Source of the DNA: a virus
Virus record (IMG/VR): IMGVR_UViG_3300050137_000015
Span: 1 to 36,337 of that record
Length of the DNA: 36,337 nt
Direction: 5' to 3' (one strand)
Positions 1 to 20,646 of this stretch are shown here, piece by piece (the stretch's first letter is position 1; each line of letters opens with the position of its first letter). A program made the position numbers and the translations under genes. The notes under the pieces are model-generated. The model was not told the DNA's origin and searched no databases. It saw nothing but the letters and a program-made list of their open reading frames with translations.

Positions 1-435
1 TCGTCTTCTTTGCTTATGTATTTCAGTGGAAACGCCACTAAAACTCCCTTAGACCAAACAGCGACAGGGGGGAATACAGGGAACAGCACTTCGCTGACGT
101 TGACTACAGGAGGGACCGACGCCGCCGCCGGCGAGTTAGTGCTCCTAGTGCTGGGCGCGATTAGCGGTAAATCGACCGGCGCGATGGTTATCGGCTCGCA
201 AAACAACGGACTGTCCCTCACCATCACTTCGACCGTGGCCGCCGCGCAAGTCGCTCGCGGGACTACGACTGGCAACAGCGTGGCAGATTCGGTGTCCGCG
301 TACATTACTCACTCCGGCGTTGGTACGCAGGCGCAGAACGGGGTGCTGGCTTCGTTCAAACTTAGCAGCGGGGTAACGTTTACCGTCATCCCCATTTCTC
401 GTGGCCGCTGGTTCTTCGGTTCGGAGGCGGCGTGA
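1..435 (+). CDS. Partial tail/adhesin-type structural protein (5' end outside window)
   Basis: The frame is open from base 1, so the gene is truncated by the window edge; the TTG at 10 is probably internal. The visible ~144 residues are rich in Thr, Ser, Gly and Ala, with alternating hydrophobic stretches such as GELVLLVLGA, typical of beta-sandwich modules in phage tail fibres. The same style (a GD/GE-L-hydrophobic strand after a Ser/Thr-rich strand) occurs in the first ~200 residues of the large tail protein starting at 5194 and in the small protein at 4839. The gene ends in a GGAGG-containing stretch (423-427) that serves as ribosome-binding site for the ATG at 435. The virion role is inferred from composition and position; no specific family is recognised. 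Confidence 0.6.
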   Translation, partial: SSSLLMYFSGNATKTPLDQTATGGNTGNSTSLTLTTGGTDAAAGELVLLVLGAISGKSTGAMVIGSQNNGLSLTITSTVAAAQVARGTTTGNSVADSVSAYITHSGVGTQAQNGVLASFKLSSGVTFTVIPISRGRWFFGSEAA

Positions 436-839
436 TGCGCCTTCACCTCGTCGGACTCCCCCACACCGAACTAACCGATGAGTTCAGTTGGTACAGTGAA
501 TGTATGAGGACTGGCCGACCCCCTACTCCAGCGGATCAGCGGTTCTGGCTAAAGGTTCACAAGAAGGGGCTTGGGGGATGTTGGCTCTGGCTGGCCACTA
601 AAGACAGTCACGGCTACGGTGTATTTGCCATAGTCAAGGAGAAACGACATCGTTGCGTCGGCGCGCATCGGTGGGCCTACGAGAGGCTTGTCGCCCCAAT
701 TCCGCAGGGCTTAGTCATCGATCACCTGTGTCGTGTGCGCCACTGCGTAAACCCTACTCACATGGAAATAGTCTCTGTTCGCGAGAACACACTTCGCGGC
801 GTCGGCATCACGGCTCAGTACGCGCGACGCAGCCAATGA
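435..839 (+). CDS. HNH endonuclease fused to a duplicated glycosyltransferase N-terminus
   Basis: 134 residues from the ATG at 435, preceded by a good GGAGG. Residues ~1-19 (MRLHLVGLPHTE...SW) repeat the start of the glycosyltransferase at 836. The HNH protein proper begins near residue 24 (MRTGRPPTPADQRFW, ATG 504). It has the usual features: GCWLWL, AHRWAYE (H79), the IDHLCR core (D97, H98) and CVNPTH. Family knowledge: such proteins are Mg-dependent DNA nickers or nucleases and often mobile. A TACAGT hexamer 6 nt before ATG 504 may give independent leaderless expression. The stop overlaps the next start (ATGA, 836-839). The nuclease call is strong; which start is used is uncertain. Confidence 0.85.
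   Translation: MRLHLVGLPHTELTDEFSWYSECMRTGRPPTPADQRFWLKVHKKGLGGCWLWLATKDSHGYGVFAIVKEKRHRCVGAHRWAYERLVAPIPQGLVIDHLCRVRHCVNPTHMEIVSVRENTLRGVGITAQYARRSQ
492..503 (+). promoter_or_regulatory. Putative leaderless -10 element for the HNH gene
   Basis: TACAGT (492-497, fits TANNNT) lies 6 nt before ATG 504, with no Shine-Dalgarno between. Weak alone, but the same geometry precedes the HNH starts at 8380, 16964 and 20646. Confidence 0.3.
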
Positions 840-1843
840 GACTCCATCTAGTCGGGCTGCCCCACACTGAGTTCACGGATTCCTACAGCTGGTGCGCGTT
901 TACGGCCCTCGGACTTACGTTTTCTACCATGATGACCCAACAAGGGCATGAAGTCATTCTCTACGGAGGCGAGCGTACCGACGCGGAATGCTCGGAGTTC
1001 GTTGCCTGTCATGGTCCGGTCAGCACGGAGTTTCACGTACCCGAGTGGACGCAGGACTACTTCTCTAACATGAACGACCGAGTGATACACGAGATGCGCG
1101 AGCGCATTCGCCCCGGTGATTTCATTCTTCTGTCGATGGGGGTCTGTCAGCTACCAATTCAATACGCCTTCCCCAACAACGTCTGCGTCGAGTACTGCGT
1201 TGGCTACGGTGGGTCGACGGCACCGGCACGAGTCTTTCCTAGCGAGGCGTGGCGACACATCATCTACGGGCACCGGGCAGAGAACGTCATGGTCATCCGA
1301 GGAATGTGCACCGATGCGGTAATCCCGCATTTCCTGGACCCGACTAAGTTCCCCGAAGGTAAAGGCGGGGGGTACCTGTTGTTCATGGGCAGGCACGGGT
1401 CGCTGAAGGGCGAGGAGGTTGCCTTACAAGTTGCTGAAGAGACCGGCTTTGAACTTATCGACATCGGACCCGGAGGCAAGGTCGTTGGTCCGAAGGAGCG
1501 CGCGGATTTGATGGGTGGGGCCAGGGCAGTCTTAACCCCGAGTATGTTTCCCGAGCCGTTCTGCCTGGTAGCCATCGAAGCCCAGATGTGCGGGACGCCC
1601 GTGCTTACCACGGATTGGGGTGCGTTCACCGAGACCGTCTCGCAGGGAGAATCCGGCTTCAGGTGCTCCACTATTCCTGAGTTCGTGGAGTCCGCGAAGA
1701 AGATTGGCGAACTTGACAGGAACCTGGTACGCGAGCGGGCGCTCTCTCTCTACTCCACCGACGCCATTGGTCCTCAGTACGAGCGGTTTTTCCAACGTCT
1801 TAAGGTAATCTATCCGGAGAGGTTTCCAGAAGGGGTGGTGTGA
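836..1843 (+). CDS. Glycosyltransferase, GT4-like (group 1)
   Basis: 335 residues from ATG 836 (MRLHLVGLPHTEFTDSYSW). The frame stays open further upstream, but that extension is antisense-like and overlaps the HNH gene. Residues ~180-300 form the C-terminal Rossmann half of a GT-B enzyme: YLLFMGRHGSLKG, then FPEPFCLVAIEA, an intact EX7E-type motif (E240/E248), and MCGTPVLTTDWGAFTE. Family knowledge: retaining sugar transfer from a nucleotide-sugar. Substrate is unknown; virion proteins, phage DNA or host cell-wall glycans are possible. No Shine-Dalgarno precedes 836, so translation likely depends on coupling to the HNH stop (ATGA). The native ribosome-binding site seems to remain in front of the duplicated 5' end at 435. 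Confidence 0.85.
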   Translation: MRLHLVGLPHTEFTDSYSWCAFTALGLTFSTMMTQQGHEVILYGGERTDAECSEFVACHGPVSTEFHVPEWTQDYFSNMNDRVIHEMRERIRPGDFILLSMGVCQLPIQYAFPNNVCVEYCVGYGGSTAPARVFPSEAWRHIIYGHRAENVMVIRGMCTDAVIPHFLDPTKFPEGKGGGYLLFMGRHGSLKGEEVALQVAEETGFELIDIGPGGKVVGPKERADLMGGARAVLTPSMFPEPFCLVAIEAQMCGTPVLTTDWGAFTETVSQGESGFRCSTIPEFVESAKKIGELDRNLVRERALSLYSTDAIGPQYERFFQRLKVIYPERFPEGVV

Positions 1844-8379: not shown

Positions 8380-8925
8380 ATGTCAAAAACCCTCATACAA
8401 AGACTGGCAAACAAGTTCACAATTGGCGATGATTGTTGGGAGTGGACCGCGTGTAAGGGACGGGGATATGGAATCGTTATGTGCGAAGACAAGGTGAACC
8501 GTATCGCTCATCGGGTTATCTACCAGCTTCTCGTCGGGCCAGTCCCAAAGGAACTGCAACTAGATCACCTGTGTCGGAATCGAGGATGCGTCAAACCTTC
8601 TCATCTCGAACCAGTAACCGCGAAGGTGAATATCAATCGCGGGCGCAAGGCTAACGCCGAGAAAACCCACTGCAAGAACGGACATCCGTTTAACGACGAG
8701 AATACGCGCCGAAGTGTCAGGAAGAACGGACGCCAACGCCGGGACTGCCTTTCATGCGAACGTTCGAAGAACGTTGGACCCAAACCTCTCCCTACTCACT
8801 GCAAGAACGGCCACGAGTACATGCCTGAGAATATCTACATGACCACGGACAATGCGCGTGCATGTCGCATCTGTAGACAACAATGGATGCGTGACTTCTA
8901 TGCCAGAAAGAAAGCTCTAGCATGA
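8380..8925 (+). CDS. HNH endonuclease with tandem zinc modules
   Basis: 181 residues. Residues ~19-80 carry the HNH fold: CWEWTACKGRGYG, AHRVIYQLL, LDHLCRNRGC (D62, H63) and CVKPSHLEP. Two consecutive Cys/His modules follow, each CKNGH then a CxxC: C98, H102, C123, C126 and C141, H145, C162, C165. The related HNH gene at 20221-20646 has only one such module. Family knowledge: phage HNH enzymes are often homing nucleases, and the extra zinc modules probably bind DNA. It separates the tail protein from the lysis peptidase and overlaps the latter by ATGA, so it likely arrived as an insertion. Confidence 0.9.
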   Translation: MSKTLIQRLANKFTIGDDCWEWTACKGRGYGIVMCEDKVNRIAHRVIYQLLVGPVPKELQLDHLCRNRGCVKPSHLEPVTAKVNINRGRKANAEKTHCKNGHPFNDENTRRSVRKNGRQRRDCLSCERSKNVGPKPLPTHCKNGHEYMPENIYMTTDNARACRICRQQWMRDFYARKKALA

Positions 8926-14506: not shown

Positions 14507-14655
14507 GTTTCAGCAAGGAAGAACTTGAAAAAGGCCGTGAGCTGTACGAATACCGAAGGACTTTACGCATCGCCAAGGAAGTAGCCGAGGAGAGCATAGA
14601 GCGGTTGGAGAGGGAAATTGTCGAACTGAAACGAAAGTTGGCGGCCCATGAGTGA
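14503..14655 (+). CDS. 50-residue coiled-coil protein
   Basis: ATG 14503 overlaps the preceding stop (ATGA). Nearly all of it is a charged heptad-like helix (KEVAEESIERLEREIVELKR). No membrane segment. It may dimerise with the HTH protein just upstream, inferred only from the coupled position. Confidence 0.5.
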   Translation: MSFSKEELEKGRELYEYRRTLRIAKEVAEESIERLEREIVELKRKLAAHE

Positions 14656-14671
14656 CATGAAGGGCGGGAAA

Positions 14672-15316
14672 ATGGATGAGGTTCTTTACAAATGGCTCTT
14701 GGCTGATCGACGCTCACCGATTCAAAAGGAGCCGTGGCCCGTCGATGACTTGCTCTGGACGCCGAGCGTCAAGCCCGTCATCTGCAAATCCGGCTGGCAT
14801 GGGATGGTGGAGAAAGACGTTCTCGCCCACCTTCCCGGCGTCGGTGCTCTGCTCTACGAAGTGGAGATTCGTGGCGACGTAGTGAGTTCAGACAACAAGT
14901 TCGCCGCCGAATCCATGCGTATCGTTAACTTCATCGGAGAGGCGACCGAGCAGAGACTGCGGCTCTTCATGTGCGACGTTGCCGAGGATGTTCTGCCGAT
15001 CTACGAAGCCTACGCACCCAATGACGACCGCCCGCGAAAGTCAATCGAGGCAGGACGCGCCTACGCGCTTGACCCGACCAACAAGACGAGGGCTGCGGGG
15101 GCTGCGTGGGCTGCGAGGGCTGCGAGGGCTGAGGAGGCTGCGTGGGCTGCGAGGGCTGCGTGGGCTGCGAGGGCTGCGGGGGCTGCGGGGGCTGCGAGGG
15201 CTGCGGAGGCTGCGAGGGCTGCGGAGGCTGCGAGGGCTGCGGGGGCTGCGAGGGCTGCGGAGGCTGGCGAACGTTACTCCAACTGGCTCGTCGTTCGCCT
15301 TGAAAGCGACTTCTGA
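14672..15316 (+). CDS. DUF7666-like protein with Ala-Ala-X repeat tail
   Basis: 214 residues from ATG 14672, chosen for AAGGGCGGG upstream; in-frame ATGs at 14648 and 14657 have none. Residues ~1-120 match a small domain family: [33 protein letters not shown] and [13 protein letters not shown], then [16 protein letters not shown]. Residues 141-197 are 19 consecutive Ala-Ala-X triplets (X = Arg, Gly, Trp or Glu), followed by a short tail. I recall similar Ala/Trp/Arg repeat tails in actinobacterial and phage proteins of this type, function unknown. The repeat should form one long helix. Trp and Arg are placed every third residue, a geometry that could bind nucleic acid or membrane. Confidence 0.65.
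15092..15262 (+). repeat. 19-unit 9-bp minisatellite (GCTGCGNGG type)
   Basis: Nineteen in-frame 9-bp units encode Ala-Ala-X. Variation is concentrated in the third codon (agg, ggg, tgg or gag). One unit changes the second codon (gct gag gag). Length change by whole units would keep the frame. Confidence 0.9.
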
Positions 15317-15986: not shown

Positions 15987-16282
15987 AAAAGTGCGAGCGC
16001 TGCAACGGCTGTGGGATGCTTCAGAGTTGGTACGGCGAGGATTGTTCCGACTGCGGCGGTACGGGAGAGGTTGACGATTTGGCCTCTCTCAATGAAGGGG
16101 TGGGGGGAATGAGCGAAGAACTGATCTCACGCGAGGAGGCGGTTGCGGCGTTGGACGTTAATCTCGCTGATTGCCGCGATTGTCAACTAGGCGTGGAGTA
16201 TTGCCCCGTGTGCGATGGAATAAGAGTCGCGAAAGAAGTTCTCAAATCTTTGTCCACCCGTCTACCCCCGGAGAGCGAATGA
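15983..16282 (+). CDS. Zinc-ribbon protein, DnaJ-type CxxCxG repeats
   Basis: 99 residues, ATGA overlap. Residues ~4-30 (CERCNGCG, CSDCGGTGEV) look like half of a DnaJ cysteine-rich domain. A second Cys cluster (CRDCQLGVEYCPVC) lies near residues 64-77. An internal ATG at 16109 with a G-rich leader could start a shorter product (MSEELISREEAVAALD), so this may be two proteins or a fusion. The 'ISR' start also occurs near ATG 15549, hinting at shared origin. Function unknown; nucleic-acid or protein binding likely. Confidence 0.55.
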   Translation: MKKCERCNGCGMLQSWYGEDCSDCGGTGEVDDLASLNEGVGGMSEELISREEAVAALDVNLADCRDCQLGVEYCPVCDGIRVAKEVLKSLSTRLPPESE

Positions 16283-17004
16283 GGATACTTGATCTGTTCT
16301 GCGGTGCCGGAGGCGCGGCGACGGGGTACTCACGCGCTGGGTTTGAAGTGTTCGGGGTGGACATCAACCCTCAGCCGAACTATCCGTTTGAGTTCGTGCA
16401 GGCTGACGCACTTACCTATTTAAGAGACTTTACAGACCACATCGGCTTCCGTTTTCACGCGATTCACGCATCTCCCCCCTGCCAGGCGTATTCAATCACA
16501 AAGCACACGCACGGAGTCCAGCACCCCGACCTGCTCGGCCCGACTCGCGAACTCCTAATCGCCGCCAACGTGCCCTACATCATCGAGAATGTGGTGGGTG
16601 CTTACATGCCAGGTTCGGTAATCTGCTGCGGGTCAGACCTTTGTAGTCATGTTAGGGACAACGATGGGGTAGACCTCTTCCTGAAACGCCACCGACAATT
16701 TGAGTCGAACATCGAACTTGAGGGCTCAGCGTGTTTCTGTATCTCGAATAAGGTCCTTGGCATGAAGATCGGGGGCGTCTACGGCGGCGGTTCGCGAGAC
16801 AGAGCATGGGCTGAGAACGTCAGGCACGGCGGCTACACACCCTCAAAAACCATTCAGGAAAAGCTAATGGGCATCGACTGGATGACGCAGAAGGAACTGA
16901 ATCAGGCCATCCCTCCCGCCTACACAGAATACATAGGGTTACAGTTGATGGCATACTTAGAGAATGGAAAAACCGCTGAGAATATGCAAGGTAGAGAACT
17001 GTGA
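16279..17004 (+). CDS. C5-cytosine DNA methyltransferase
   Basis: 241 residues from ATG 16279 (GGAGAG upstream, ATGA overlap). Motif [21 protein letters not shown] at ~3-22, motif [11 protein letters not shown] (catalytic Cys), motif [11 protein letters not shown], motif [13 protein letters not shown], then a recognition segment and [15 protein letters not shown] (motif IX/X). Shorter than bacterial Dcm-type enzymes, as usual for phage ones. It probably methylates phage DNA against host restriction. No partner restriction enzyme is seen. Its C-terminal segment after QLM ([17 protein letters not shown]) overlaps the following HNH gene, and an alternative copy of the motif X end lies beyond that gene (17343-17408). 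Confidence 0.93.
16952..16963 (+). promoter_or_regulatory. Putative leaderless -10 for the HNH gene
   Basis: CATACT (16952-16957) ends 6 nt before ATG 16964, with no Shine-Dalgarno. Weak alone, but the spacing matches the other HNH genes. Confidence 0.25.
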
Positions 17005-17350
17005 ACGAAAACATGCGGCTCACGGGCTGTGCCTCATCCACTACAAAATGCAGCGAGAGCGCGGGACCACTGAACCATTTGTCCGCACTCGAAAGGACTA
17101 CACCGACCCACGTGGCTACGTCCGGCGCTATGTGGATGGGAGACGCCAGGGGCAGCTTGTCCATCGCCTCGTCATGGAAGAACACATCGGACGCGACCTT
17201 CGACCTAGCGAAACGGTCCATCACCGCAACGGCATCAGGAACGACAACAGAATCGAGAACCTGGAACTGTGGGCGAGCGTCCAGCCGCGCGGCCAACGGA
17301 TTGAGGACTTGCTTGCCTTCGCGCATGAAGTCATCGAAATGTACGGCTGA
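16964..17350 (+). CDS. HNH endonuclease with N-terminal zinc ribbon
   Basis: 128 residues. N-terminal zinc motif [20 protein letters not shown] (C8, C13, C23, H26). HNH core [15 protein letters not shown], then [20 protein letters not shown] (H86, H87, N89, N94). Different HNH type from the CW.W group at 435, 8380 and 20646. It overlaps the methyltransferase 3' end by 41 nt. The bases after its stop re-encode a methyltransferase-like C-terminus. This placement points to an insertion at the gene end. Confidence 0.9.
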
Positions 17351-17408
17351 ATTCATCGGCACTCAACTTTTGCAGTCAGTCCTTGATTCAGCACAGGGGG
17401 ACGGGTGA
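17343..17408 (+). pseudogene. Remnant copy of the methyltransferase C-terminus
   Basis: Frame 17343-17408 reads [21 protein letters not shown]-stop. Compare the methyltransferase end [10 protein letters not shown], aromatic, I, G, x, Q, L, M/L are kept, but most codons differ silently. It has no usable start, being only the tail left downstream of the inserted HNH gene. Its last bases form the first copy of the 21-bp junction repeat. Confidence 0.6.
17388..17408 (+). repeat. 21-bp gene-junction repeat, copy 1
   Basis: Identical to 17735-17755 and containing AGCACAGGGGGACGGGTG. It encodes the C-terminal S-A-Q-G-D-G-stop of the remnant, an AGGGGG ribosome-binding site and the GTG start (17405) of the SLOG gene. 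Confidence 0.9.
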
Positions 17409-17755
17409 GACGAATTGGCGTAACAGGAGGACGGGAGTTCGAGGGGGCGGCGTCGGTCTGCCACGCTTTTACGACTTACGTTCATCTCGACGATCTAATT
17501 GTCGAAGGCGGCGCGAGGGGAGCTGACGCCATTTGTCGCGCTGAGGCACAATTGCGAGGGGTGAAAGTCGAAACTCACTCGGCTGACTGGAAGCGCCACG
17601 GTAAAGCGGCTGGGTTCATCCGCAACCAAGAAATGGTGGACTCGGGCCTCGATTTACTCATCGCATTTCCTGGCGGAAAAGGGACCGCCGACATGGTGAG
17701 ACGCGCTGAAAATGCTGGAATTACTGTGATTTTGTCAGCACAGGGGGACGGGTGA
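17405..17755 (+). CDS. SLOG/DUF2493 family protein (YAcAr-type)
   Basis: 116 residues from GTG 17405. Motifs: RIGVTGGREF at the start, LIVEGGARGADAICRAEA (nucleotide-binding loop), SADWKRHGKAAGFIRNQEMV and LLIAFPGGKGTADMVRRA. This is the standard DUF2493 series, related to the SLOG/DprA Rossmann fold. Family knowledge: binds nucleotides or nucleotide-like ligands; enzymatic role in phages unknown. The gene is bracketed by the 21-bp junction repeat, and its own C-terminus ends with the same S-A-Q-G-D-G as the remnant upstream. Likely gained as a cassette. Confidence 0.88.
   Translation: MRRIGVTGGREFEGAASVCHAFTTYVHLDDLIVEGGARGADAICRAEAQLRGVKVETHSADWKRHGKAAGFIRNQEMVDSGLDLLIAFPGGKGTADMVRRAENAGITVILSAQGDG
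17735..17755 (+). repeat. 21-bp gene-junction repeat, copy 2
   Basis: Exact second copy. It encodes the C-terminus and stop of the SLOG gene, the AGGGGG ribosome-binding site and the GTG start (17752) of the next gene. The copies are 347 bp apart. Confidence 0.9.
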
Positions 17756-20220: not shown

Positions 20221-20646
20221 CTACAAACTCTGTGAAACGTCTGTGAGTTGTATCAAATCGCTGACAACTTTTTGTCGTTGTCGCCAGTTTCTAACCTGGA
20301 TCACTCGACACTTTCGACACGCTGGACGACCGTTAGTCAACACGTACGTGTTTTTCTCGTCGTATGCGTGACCGTGCTTACATTCGGTTTTAAACGGTCT
20401 GCGACGCACATTGTCGCCCTGTGTCACTGGCTCTAAGTGATCTGGGTTCACACATCGTCTATTGCGACACAAATGGTCGATTGTTAAGCCTTCTGGTATT
20501 GGACCGACTAAGAGCTCATACGCAAAACGATGTGCGTAACCAACTTTGGCGTTGTAACCTATTCGACCGTATCCGGCATCATTGAGCGCACCAAGCCAAT
20601 TCCAACAGGTTTCAGTTTTTTCTACCTTGCGCCAGAATCTTTCCAT
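20221..20646 (-). CDS. HNH endonuclease with one zinc module
   Basis: 141 residues. MERFWRKVEKTETCWNWLG, AHRFAYELLVGPIPEG, TIDHLCRNRRC (D57, H58) and CVNPDHLEPVT form the HNH core. A C-terminal CKHGH ... CRKC module follows (C89, H93, C110, C113). Close in type to the HNH proteins at 435 and 8380. It heads the leftward block. No Shine-Dalgarno, but GATAAT lies just upstream. The gap to the next leftward gene is 51 bp. Confidence 0.9.
   Translation of the reverse strand: MERFWRKVEKTETCWNWLGALNDAGYGRIGYNAKVGYAHRFAYELLVGPIPEGLTIDHLCRNRRCVNPDHLEPVTQGDNVRRRPFKTECKHGHAYDEKNTYVLTNGRPACRKCRVIQVRNWRQRQKVVSDLIQLTDVSQSL

What the first reader, a model, noticed from the sequence alone, without database searches (positions are those of the whole stretch)
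16900..17408. Second HNH insertion, at the 3' end of the methyltransferase, again with a duplicated end
The methyltransferase ends with ...TEYIGLQLM followed by a non-family tail overlapping the HNH start. Beyond the HNH stop, an orphan frame (17343-17408) reads [17 protein letters not shown], the same motif-X end with silent codon changes. This mirrors the 435-900 case at the opposite gene end, with a different HNH type. Together they suggest endonucleases that insert at gene termini and supply a replacement end, so the host gene survives, analogous to integrases restoring tRNA genes. I do not know this as a described pattern for free-standing HNH genes.
Basis: partly seen in the sequence, partly recalled or inferred. 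Interest (0 to 1): 0.85.

Follow-up and report, generated by a model that had tools for sequence, protein, structure and literature searches.

The report
Homing gene supplying replacement gene end
In this virus of bacteria, a selfish DNA-cutting gene has inserted near the end of another gene and brought a differently spelled copy of that gene's end, so the host gene stays whole while its old end is left behind as a stub; close relatives of two other phages that carry the same kind of insert show the site before insertion.

Summary
The methyltransferase end TEYIGLQLM (16924-16950) recurs after the HNH gene as an orphan [20 protein letters not shown] (17346-17408). It scores 21.7 bits on a profile of 56 relatives, with 0 of 1.9 million unrelated frames as good. 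The HNH gene is truncated and takes its stop codon from the stub, so that junction is a non-homologous join. Gordonia phage Kabocha carries an 813-bp insert at the 3' end of terL: a recoded last 18 codons plus HNH. The old end is left as a stub identical at 56/57 bases to the intact end in HNH-free phages Gray and Chidiebere. A metagenomic terL pair shows the mirror case at the 5' end, also with empty sites. HNH-free ChisanaKitsune looks like a loss scar. Best explanation: one-sided homing; the gene-body side recombines with a related gene, the terminal side joins illegitimately, so the element brings a functional, synonymously different gene end. Closest known: fungal mitochondrial endonuclease ORFs replacing gene C-termini (PMC3630166). 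I found no report of the 5' version or the phage pattern. Homing activity is untested.

The parts
16279..17004 (+). DNA cytosine methyltransferase (host gene), now ending in the supplied C-terminus
   Evidence: PF00145 E 2e-7, phrog_363 E 4e-37
16924..17004 (+). Supplied (replacement) 3' end of the methyltransferase: TEYIGLQLM plus variable tail; its first 42 nt are AT-rich (36% GC, below every 42-nt window of the gene body)
16964..17350 (+). HNH_3 endonuclease gene, starts inside the methyltransferase tail; C-terminus cut short relative to relatives
   Evidence: PF13392 E 3e-10, phrog_20891 E 6e-25; C-terminal comparison
17340..17350 (+). Illegitimate junction: last HNH codons run into the stub, whose gct-gaa codons give the TGA stop of the HNH gene in another frame
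17346..17408 (+). Stub: ancestral 3' end of the methyltransferase ([20 protein letters not shown]), stop overlaps next start codon
   Evidence: profile score 21.7 bits
17405..17755 (+). Next gene (YspA-like SLOG family) that follows the ancestral methyltransferase end directly
   Evidence: PF10686 E 4e-11
435..494 (+). 5'-end companion case: stub of glycosyltransferase start (MRLHLVGLPHTELTDEFSWY)
504..839 (+). 5'-end companion case: HNH_3 endonuclease (open from 432 through the stub)
   Evidence: PF13392 E 2e-11, phrog_826 E 1e-34
836..1843 (+). Glycosyltransferase with the supplied 5' end (MRLHLVGLPHTEFTDSYSWC...), start overlaps the HNH stop (ATGA)
   Evidence: PF00534, phrog_3408; codon comparison

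Best explanation
A free-standing HNH homing-type element that carries its own version of the host gene's end. Steps: (1) the HNH enzyme of an infecting phage cuts a relative's methyltransferase gene near its 3' end (inferred). (2) The gene-body side of the break recombines with the donor's homologous gene, so the donor's gene end and the overlapping HNH gene are copied in without a seam (inferred from the seamless in-frame join; shown by empty sites in other phages). (3) The short terminal side has no homology beyond the HNH gene and is joined illegitimately, which truncated the HNH gene here and left the old end as a stub (junction shown, process inferred). (4) The methyltransferase stays complete because the supplied end encodes the same motif with different codons. 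The supplied end differs from the old site at most synonymous positions, so it probably resists re-cutting and does not readily recombine with the stub (inferred). (5) Once established, stub and gene body act as flanking homology for ordinary homing into close relatives (supported by the near-identical terL element in two different phages). The glycosyltransferase case at 435-1843 is the mirror image at a 5' end.
For: Window: orphan end is homologous; its stop overlaps the next gene start as natural ends here do; HNH truncated at the join and stop donated by the stub; supplied end foreign in composition, 36% GC against 56% for the gene; mirrored 5' case. Empty sites: Kabocha versus Gray, terL identical over the last 250 nt before the insert, then an 813-bp insert of recoded end + HNH, then the stub, 56/57 identical to Gray's intact end, and a 250/250 identical downstream flank; 14 of 17 conserved codons recoded with no residue change after the first. 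L264 versus L433, upstream flank and stub 60/60 identical with the HNH absent; L263 versus L434 likewise. Mobility: the L263 and L264 elements differ at 1 base over about 630 bp while their terL bodies are roughly 70-95% identical per 40-nt block and their upstream flanks unrelated. Loss scar: ChisanaKitsune, HNH-free, matches the supplied end for 23 nt and the native end after it. Further cases L089, L333, L363. One-sided illegitimate repair with microhomology has been observed for T4 homing (PMC2988022). No intron by Rfam; fold not better than shuffles.
Against: No near relative of the window phage with an empty methyltransferase or glycosyltransferase site was found (best methyltransferase 55% identical), so the window case rests on homology and analogy. 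Only a few percent of HNH genes show the pattern. No natural donor of a supplied end was identified. Cleavage and homing were not measured.
Confidence: 0.84

Rival explanations
1. Ordinary phage mosaicism: the whole methyltransferase plus HNH came in as a module by recombination at a gene boundary, without any endonuclease-driven event.
For: Phage genes are mosaic; the window has no near relative to exclude a whole-gene swap; HNH genes sit at exchange boundaries (PMC10448857).
Against: In Kabocha the terL body is identical to HNH-free Gray right up to the insert, and the terL elements in L263/L264 sit in native terL bodies. The composition break in the window lies at the motif.
Confidence: 0.1
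2. In-place duplication of the gene end (long target-site duplication or tandem duplication), followed by drift of one copy.
For: Would give two copies flanking the HNH gene; the window also has an exact 21-bp repeat of a gene end.
Against: The stub has not drifted (56/57 and 60/60 identical to empty relatives), while the functional copy differs at most synonymous sites with residues kept. The same supplied end occurs in two different terL genes.
Confidence: 0.04
3. The HNH gene lies in a self-splicing intron and the true methyltransferase end is the orphan, joined by splicing.
For: Phage HNH genes often lie in group I introns; the ShiLan authors considered this for a similar flank similarity.
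Against: No Rfam intron in any of six loci; the fold is no better than shuffles; the unspliced gene already has a complete natural-length C-terminus.
Confidence: 0.02

Closest known systems
Fungal mitochondrial mobile endonuclease ORFs that create gene hybrids (atp6 of Allomyces; atp6, atp9, cox2, nad3 of Glomus; PMC3630166)
   Same: Endonuclease ORF next to a gene whose C-terminus is replaced by an in-frame foreign one; the native C-terminus remains downstream and matches close relatives; large synonymous divergence between copies.
   Different: LAGLIDADG or GIY-YIG enzymes, mitochondria, 3' ends only in the cases read; here HNH_3, phages, and both 3' and 5' gene ends.
ShiLan domain in mycobacteriophage methylases (PMC11855218)
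   Same: HNH endonuclease inserted in a phage DNA methylase with disjunct distribution; the first 11 residues of the insert resemble the 11 residues after the site, more alike as protein than as DNA.
   Different: Inserted in mid-gene, so host protein and HNH are read in overlapping frames; the authors weighed the similarity as an intron signal and did not recognise a supplied end. My reading of gp65 (SYEPVCVAVKP / AFEPIVVARKP) fits the same footprint.
T4 free-standing homing endonucleases (seg, mob) and intronless homing (PMC2988022)
   Same: Free-standing HEG beside its target gene; one-sided illegitimate repair with microhomology known in T4 homing.
   Different: The passages read report no duplicated or replaced gene end; cut sites lie hundreds of bases from the HEG.
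Integrative elements that restore the 3' end of a tRNA or protein gene
   Same: Element carries a functional replacement for the end of the gene it interrupts.
   Different: No integrase or attachment sites here; both gene ends are used (comparison from general knowledge).

Membership tests
Free-standing HNH homing endonuclease (intronless homing) | HNH nuclease domain with catalytic residues | tested here: met
   PF13392 above cut-off; [18 protein letters not shown] core conserved
Free-standing HNH homing endonuclease (intronless homing) | Gene present or absent at the same site in close relatives (mobile) | tested here: inconclusive
   Window: no close relative held. Met for Kabocha/Gray and L264/L433, L263/L434
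Free-standing HNH homing endonuclease (intronless homing) | Cuts the HEG-less allele and is inherited preferentially | not testable with these tools
   needs in vitro cleavage and mixed infections
Mitochondrial mORF gene-hybrid element | Foreign gene end in frame, native end left beyond the endonuclease ORF | tested here: met
Mitochondrial mORF gene-hybrid element | Native end matches HEG-free close relatives | tested here: inconclusive
   Met in Kabocha (56/57) and L264 (60/60); no close relative of the window
Mitochondrial mORF gene-hybrid element | LAGLIDADG or GIY-YIG enzyme in a mitochondrial genome | tested here: not met
   HNH_3 enzyme in a virus record; filed as working like it, not as a member
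Group I intron-encoded endonuclease | Intron RNA around the ORF | tested here: not met
   no Rfam match; fold z-score +1.1
Gene-end-restoring integrative element | Integrase and attachment sites | tested here: not met
   insert holds only the HNH ORF

The most novel reading that the evidence does not exclude
These are a distinct class of phage homing elements in which the recoded gene end is an adaptation. The element is selected to carry a synonymously rewritten terminus that restores the host protein, removes the endonuclease site and blocks recombinational loss, so it can occupy essential genes such as terL at either end without splicing.
Probability: 0.35. Interest if true: 0.85.

Novelty: new variant of a known kind. 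Interest (0 to 1): 0.73.

Why it matters
It explains how a selfish nuclease gene without an intron or intein can sit at the edge of an essential gene: it brings a working gene end with it. It gives a recognisable DNA signature (a stub plus a recoded copy around an HNH gene) for finding homing events and their empty sites in any phage, and it offers a reading of the unexplained flank similarity of the ShiLan element. It also warns that gene starts and ends next to HNH genes may be foreign, which affects annotation. Cultured phages with and without the element (Kabocha, Gray, Chidiebere, ChisanaKitsune) make the mechanism directly testable.

Tried and rejected
Blind BLOSUM flank comparison for the methyltransferase case: too weak for this short end (score 28-30), replaced by a family profile. 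A blind 3'-end survey of 159 loci gave no excess over controls; its sensitivity is too low for short ends. High-scoring survey hits dropped on inspection: low-complexity translations (L339, L357 and others), paralogous tail genes beside HNH genes (L302, L298, L291, L290, L317, L311, L309, L086), tandem HNH genes (L163). StenR_269 (L563; score 45) set aside because the upstream segment may be the HNH protein's own N-terminal helix-turn-helix. The window's other HNH_3 genes at 8380-8925 and 20221-20646 show no duplicated end. A search for the donor of the terL supplied end found nothing close at DNA level among 78 relatives, nor did GMA6 resemble the Kabocha supplied end (34/57 to either copy). 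The short-peptide tblastn returned nothing. Intron reading rejected.

Full report
WHAT IS THERE. The methyltransferase gene (16279-17004; PF00145, phrog_363) ends [30 protein letters not shown]. The HNH_3 gene (16964-17350) begins inside its tail. Directly after the HNH stop, a frame with no start of its own reads [20 protein letters not shown] and stops at 17408, overlapping the GTG of a SLOG-family gene. Among about 60 relatives whose ends were read, the conserved PPAYTE(F/Y)IGxQLL motif is followed by 0-25 variable residues and then the stop, so both copies look like natural ends. A 9-column profile gives 23.3 and 21.7 bits to the two copies; the third best window in the 36-kb record has 12.9, and none of 1.9 million windows in the other loci reaches 21.7.

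THE JUNCTIONS TELL DIRECTION. The upstream copy is joined in frame to the gene body, and its first 42 nt have 36% GC, lower than every window of that size in the gene body. The downstream copy is joined to the HNH gene by a break. Most HNH relatives continue 2-15 or more residues past the ...EMYG point (e.g. EIIEMYGDLELPCDSS*), whereas here the protein stops at once, with a TGA formed by the stub's gct-gaa codons in another frame. So the stub side is an illegitimate join and the gene-body side is seamless.

MIRROR CASE. At 435-494 the start of the glycosyltransferase (MRLHLVGLPHTELTDEFSWY) precedes an HNH gene. The complete glycosyltransferase begins again at 836, overlapping the HNH stop, with MRLHLVGLPHTEFTDSYSWC: 10 codons changed silently, 4 with a changed residue, 6 identical. 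The window has two more HNH_3 genes without such repeats.

RELATIVES PROVE THE ARRANGEMENT. (a) Gordonia phage Kabocha (OP867022): terL ends LSGAFAEAAFARRGRLLA*, HNH gp17 follows, then ISGAFAEAAFARRGRLLA* again. Against HNH-free Gray, the terL sequence is identical up to the insert; 813 bp of recoded end + HNH follow; then the stub, 56/57 identical to Gray's real end, and an identical downstream flank (250/250). Of 17 conserved residues, 14 have another codon in the supplied end. Chidiebere and Schomber are also empty with the native end. ChisanaKitsune, without HNH, carries the supplied-end codons for 23 nt and native codons after them, which is what recombination between the two copies would leave. 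(b) Metagenomic terL: L264 and L263 have a native 5' stub, an HNH gene, and a recoded 5' end joined to terL. L433 and L434 are their empty counterparts (stub plus flank 60/60 identical for L433; the same native start is continuous with the body in both). The element differs at 1 base over about 630 bp between L263 and L264, although the terL bodies are clearly diverged and the upstream genes differ, so it has moved recently. (c) L089 (prohead protease start; all 16 codons keep the residue, 10 recoded), L333 (DUF5675 start) and L363 (short zinc-ribbon-like start) are further 5' cases without empty sites.

HOW COMMON. In 199 HNH genes from viral and bacterial contigs, 6 have flank similarity >=55 against 2 of 1592 mismatched pairs (Fisher P 4e-5). 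Four survive inspection (L089, L263/L264 counted once, L333, L363); P 0.002 against uninspected controls. Among 15 cultured-phage loci found with this HNH, Kabocha is clear and StenR_269 doubtful. So it is a minority pattern but far above chance. Short 3' ends are probably under-detected.

RECODING. Over eight duplicated ends (StenR_269 included), 69 of 93 degenerate codons for conserved residues differ. That is at or slightly beyond what random codon choice would give (expected identical about 37%, from Kabocha codon usage; P about 0.015, rough). Saturated divergence from a distant donor explains this. Selection for a rewritten end is possible: Kabocha's supplied end keeps 17/18 residues while the more distant GMA6 differs at several residues. 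No donor was found.

MECHANISM. I infer one-sided homing: break near the gene end, homologous repair on the gene-body side copying the donor's gene end and HNH gene, illegitimate joining on the other side. T4 one-sided homing with microhomology junctions is documented (PMC2988022). Afterwards stub and body supply two-sided homology for ordinary homing, as L263/L264 suggest. Cleavage, homing and protection of the recoded end are not shown here.

KNOWN OR NEW. The same logic is established in fungal mitochondria, where mobile endonuclease ORFs bring a foreign C-terminus and leave the native one downstream, with mostly synonymous differences (PMC3630166; PMC4019555). For phages, the searches found no account of it. 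The ShiLan paper records the flank similarity without this explanation (PMC11855218). The library holds open-access papers only, so absence there is weak evidence. I therefore rate it a new variant of a known kind, with the 5'-end version the most distinctive part.

Noticed in passing
window 17388-17408 and 17735-17755: Exact 21-bp direct repeat TCAGCACAGGGGGACGGGTGA: the last codons (SAQGDG*) of the methyltransferase stub recur, in frame, as the last codons of the SLOG gene, so that gene is also flanked by a duplicated gene end, here exact and without a nuclease (0 expected in shuffles).
   Followed up: partly
window 15087-15275: About 20 tandem 9-bp units in the 14648-15316 ORF encode an Ala-Ala-Arg/Glu/Trp/Gly repeat.
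   Followed up: no
L580 (Gordonia phage ChisanaKitsune): HNH-free terL end is a mosaic of Kabocha's supplied codons (23 nt) and the native end: a possible scar of element loss.
   Followed up: yes
L086, L290, L291, L298, L302, L303, L309, L311, L317: HNH genes of the same family repeatedly sit between or next to paralogous tail-type genes (..LGSAAASITFSSIPATYTDL..), perhaps whole-gene versions of the same event.
   Followed up: no
IMGVR_UViG_3300003465_000004 (L254, L265, L275, L280, L328) and G048: Single phage records with at least five related HNH genes, and one with eight HNH_3 genes.
   Followed up: no
L560 4786-7668 (ShiLan gp65): Insert begins SYEPVCVAVKP and the site resumes AFEPIVVARKP, consistent with a supplied end in mid-gene.
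   Followed up: partly
L133 2717-3813: HNH gene flanked by several repeats (42, 37, 47 nt and others, mostly 90-97% identical) about 730-910 bp apart, resembling duplicated intron-like flanks.
   Followed up: no
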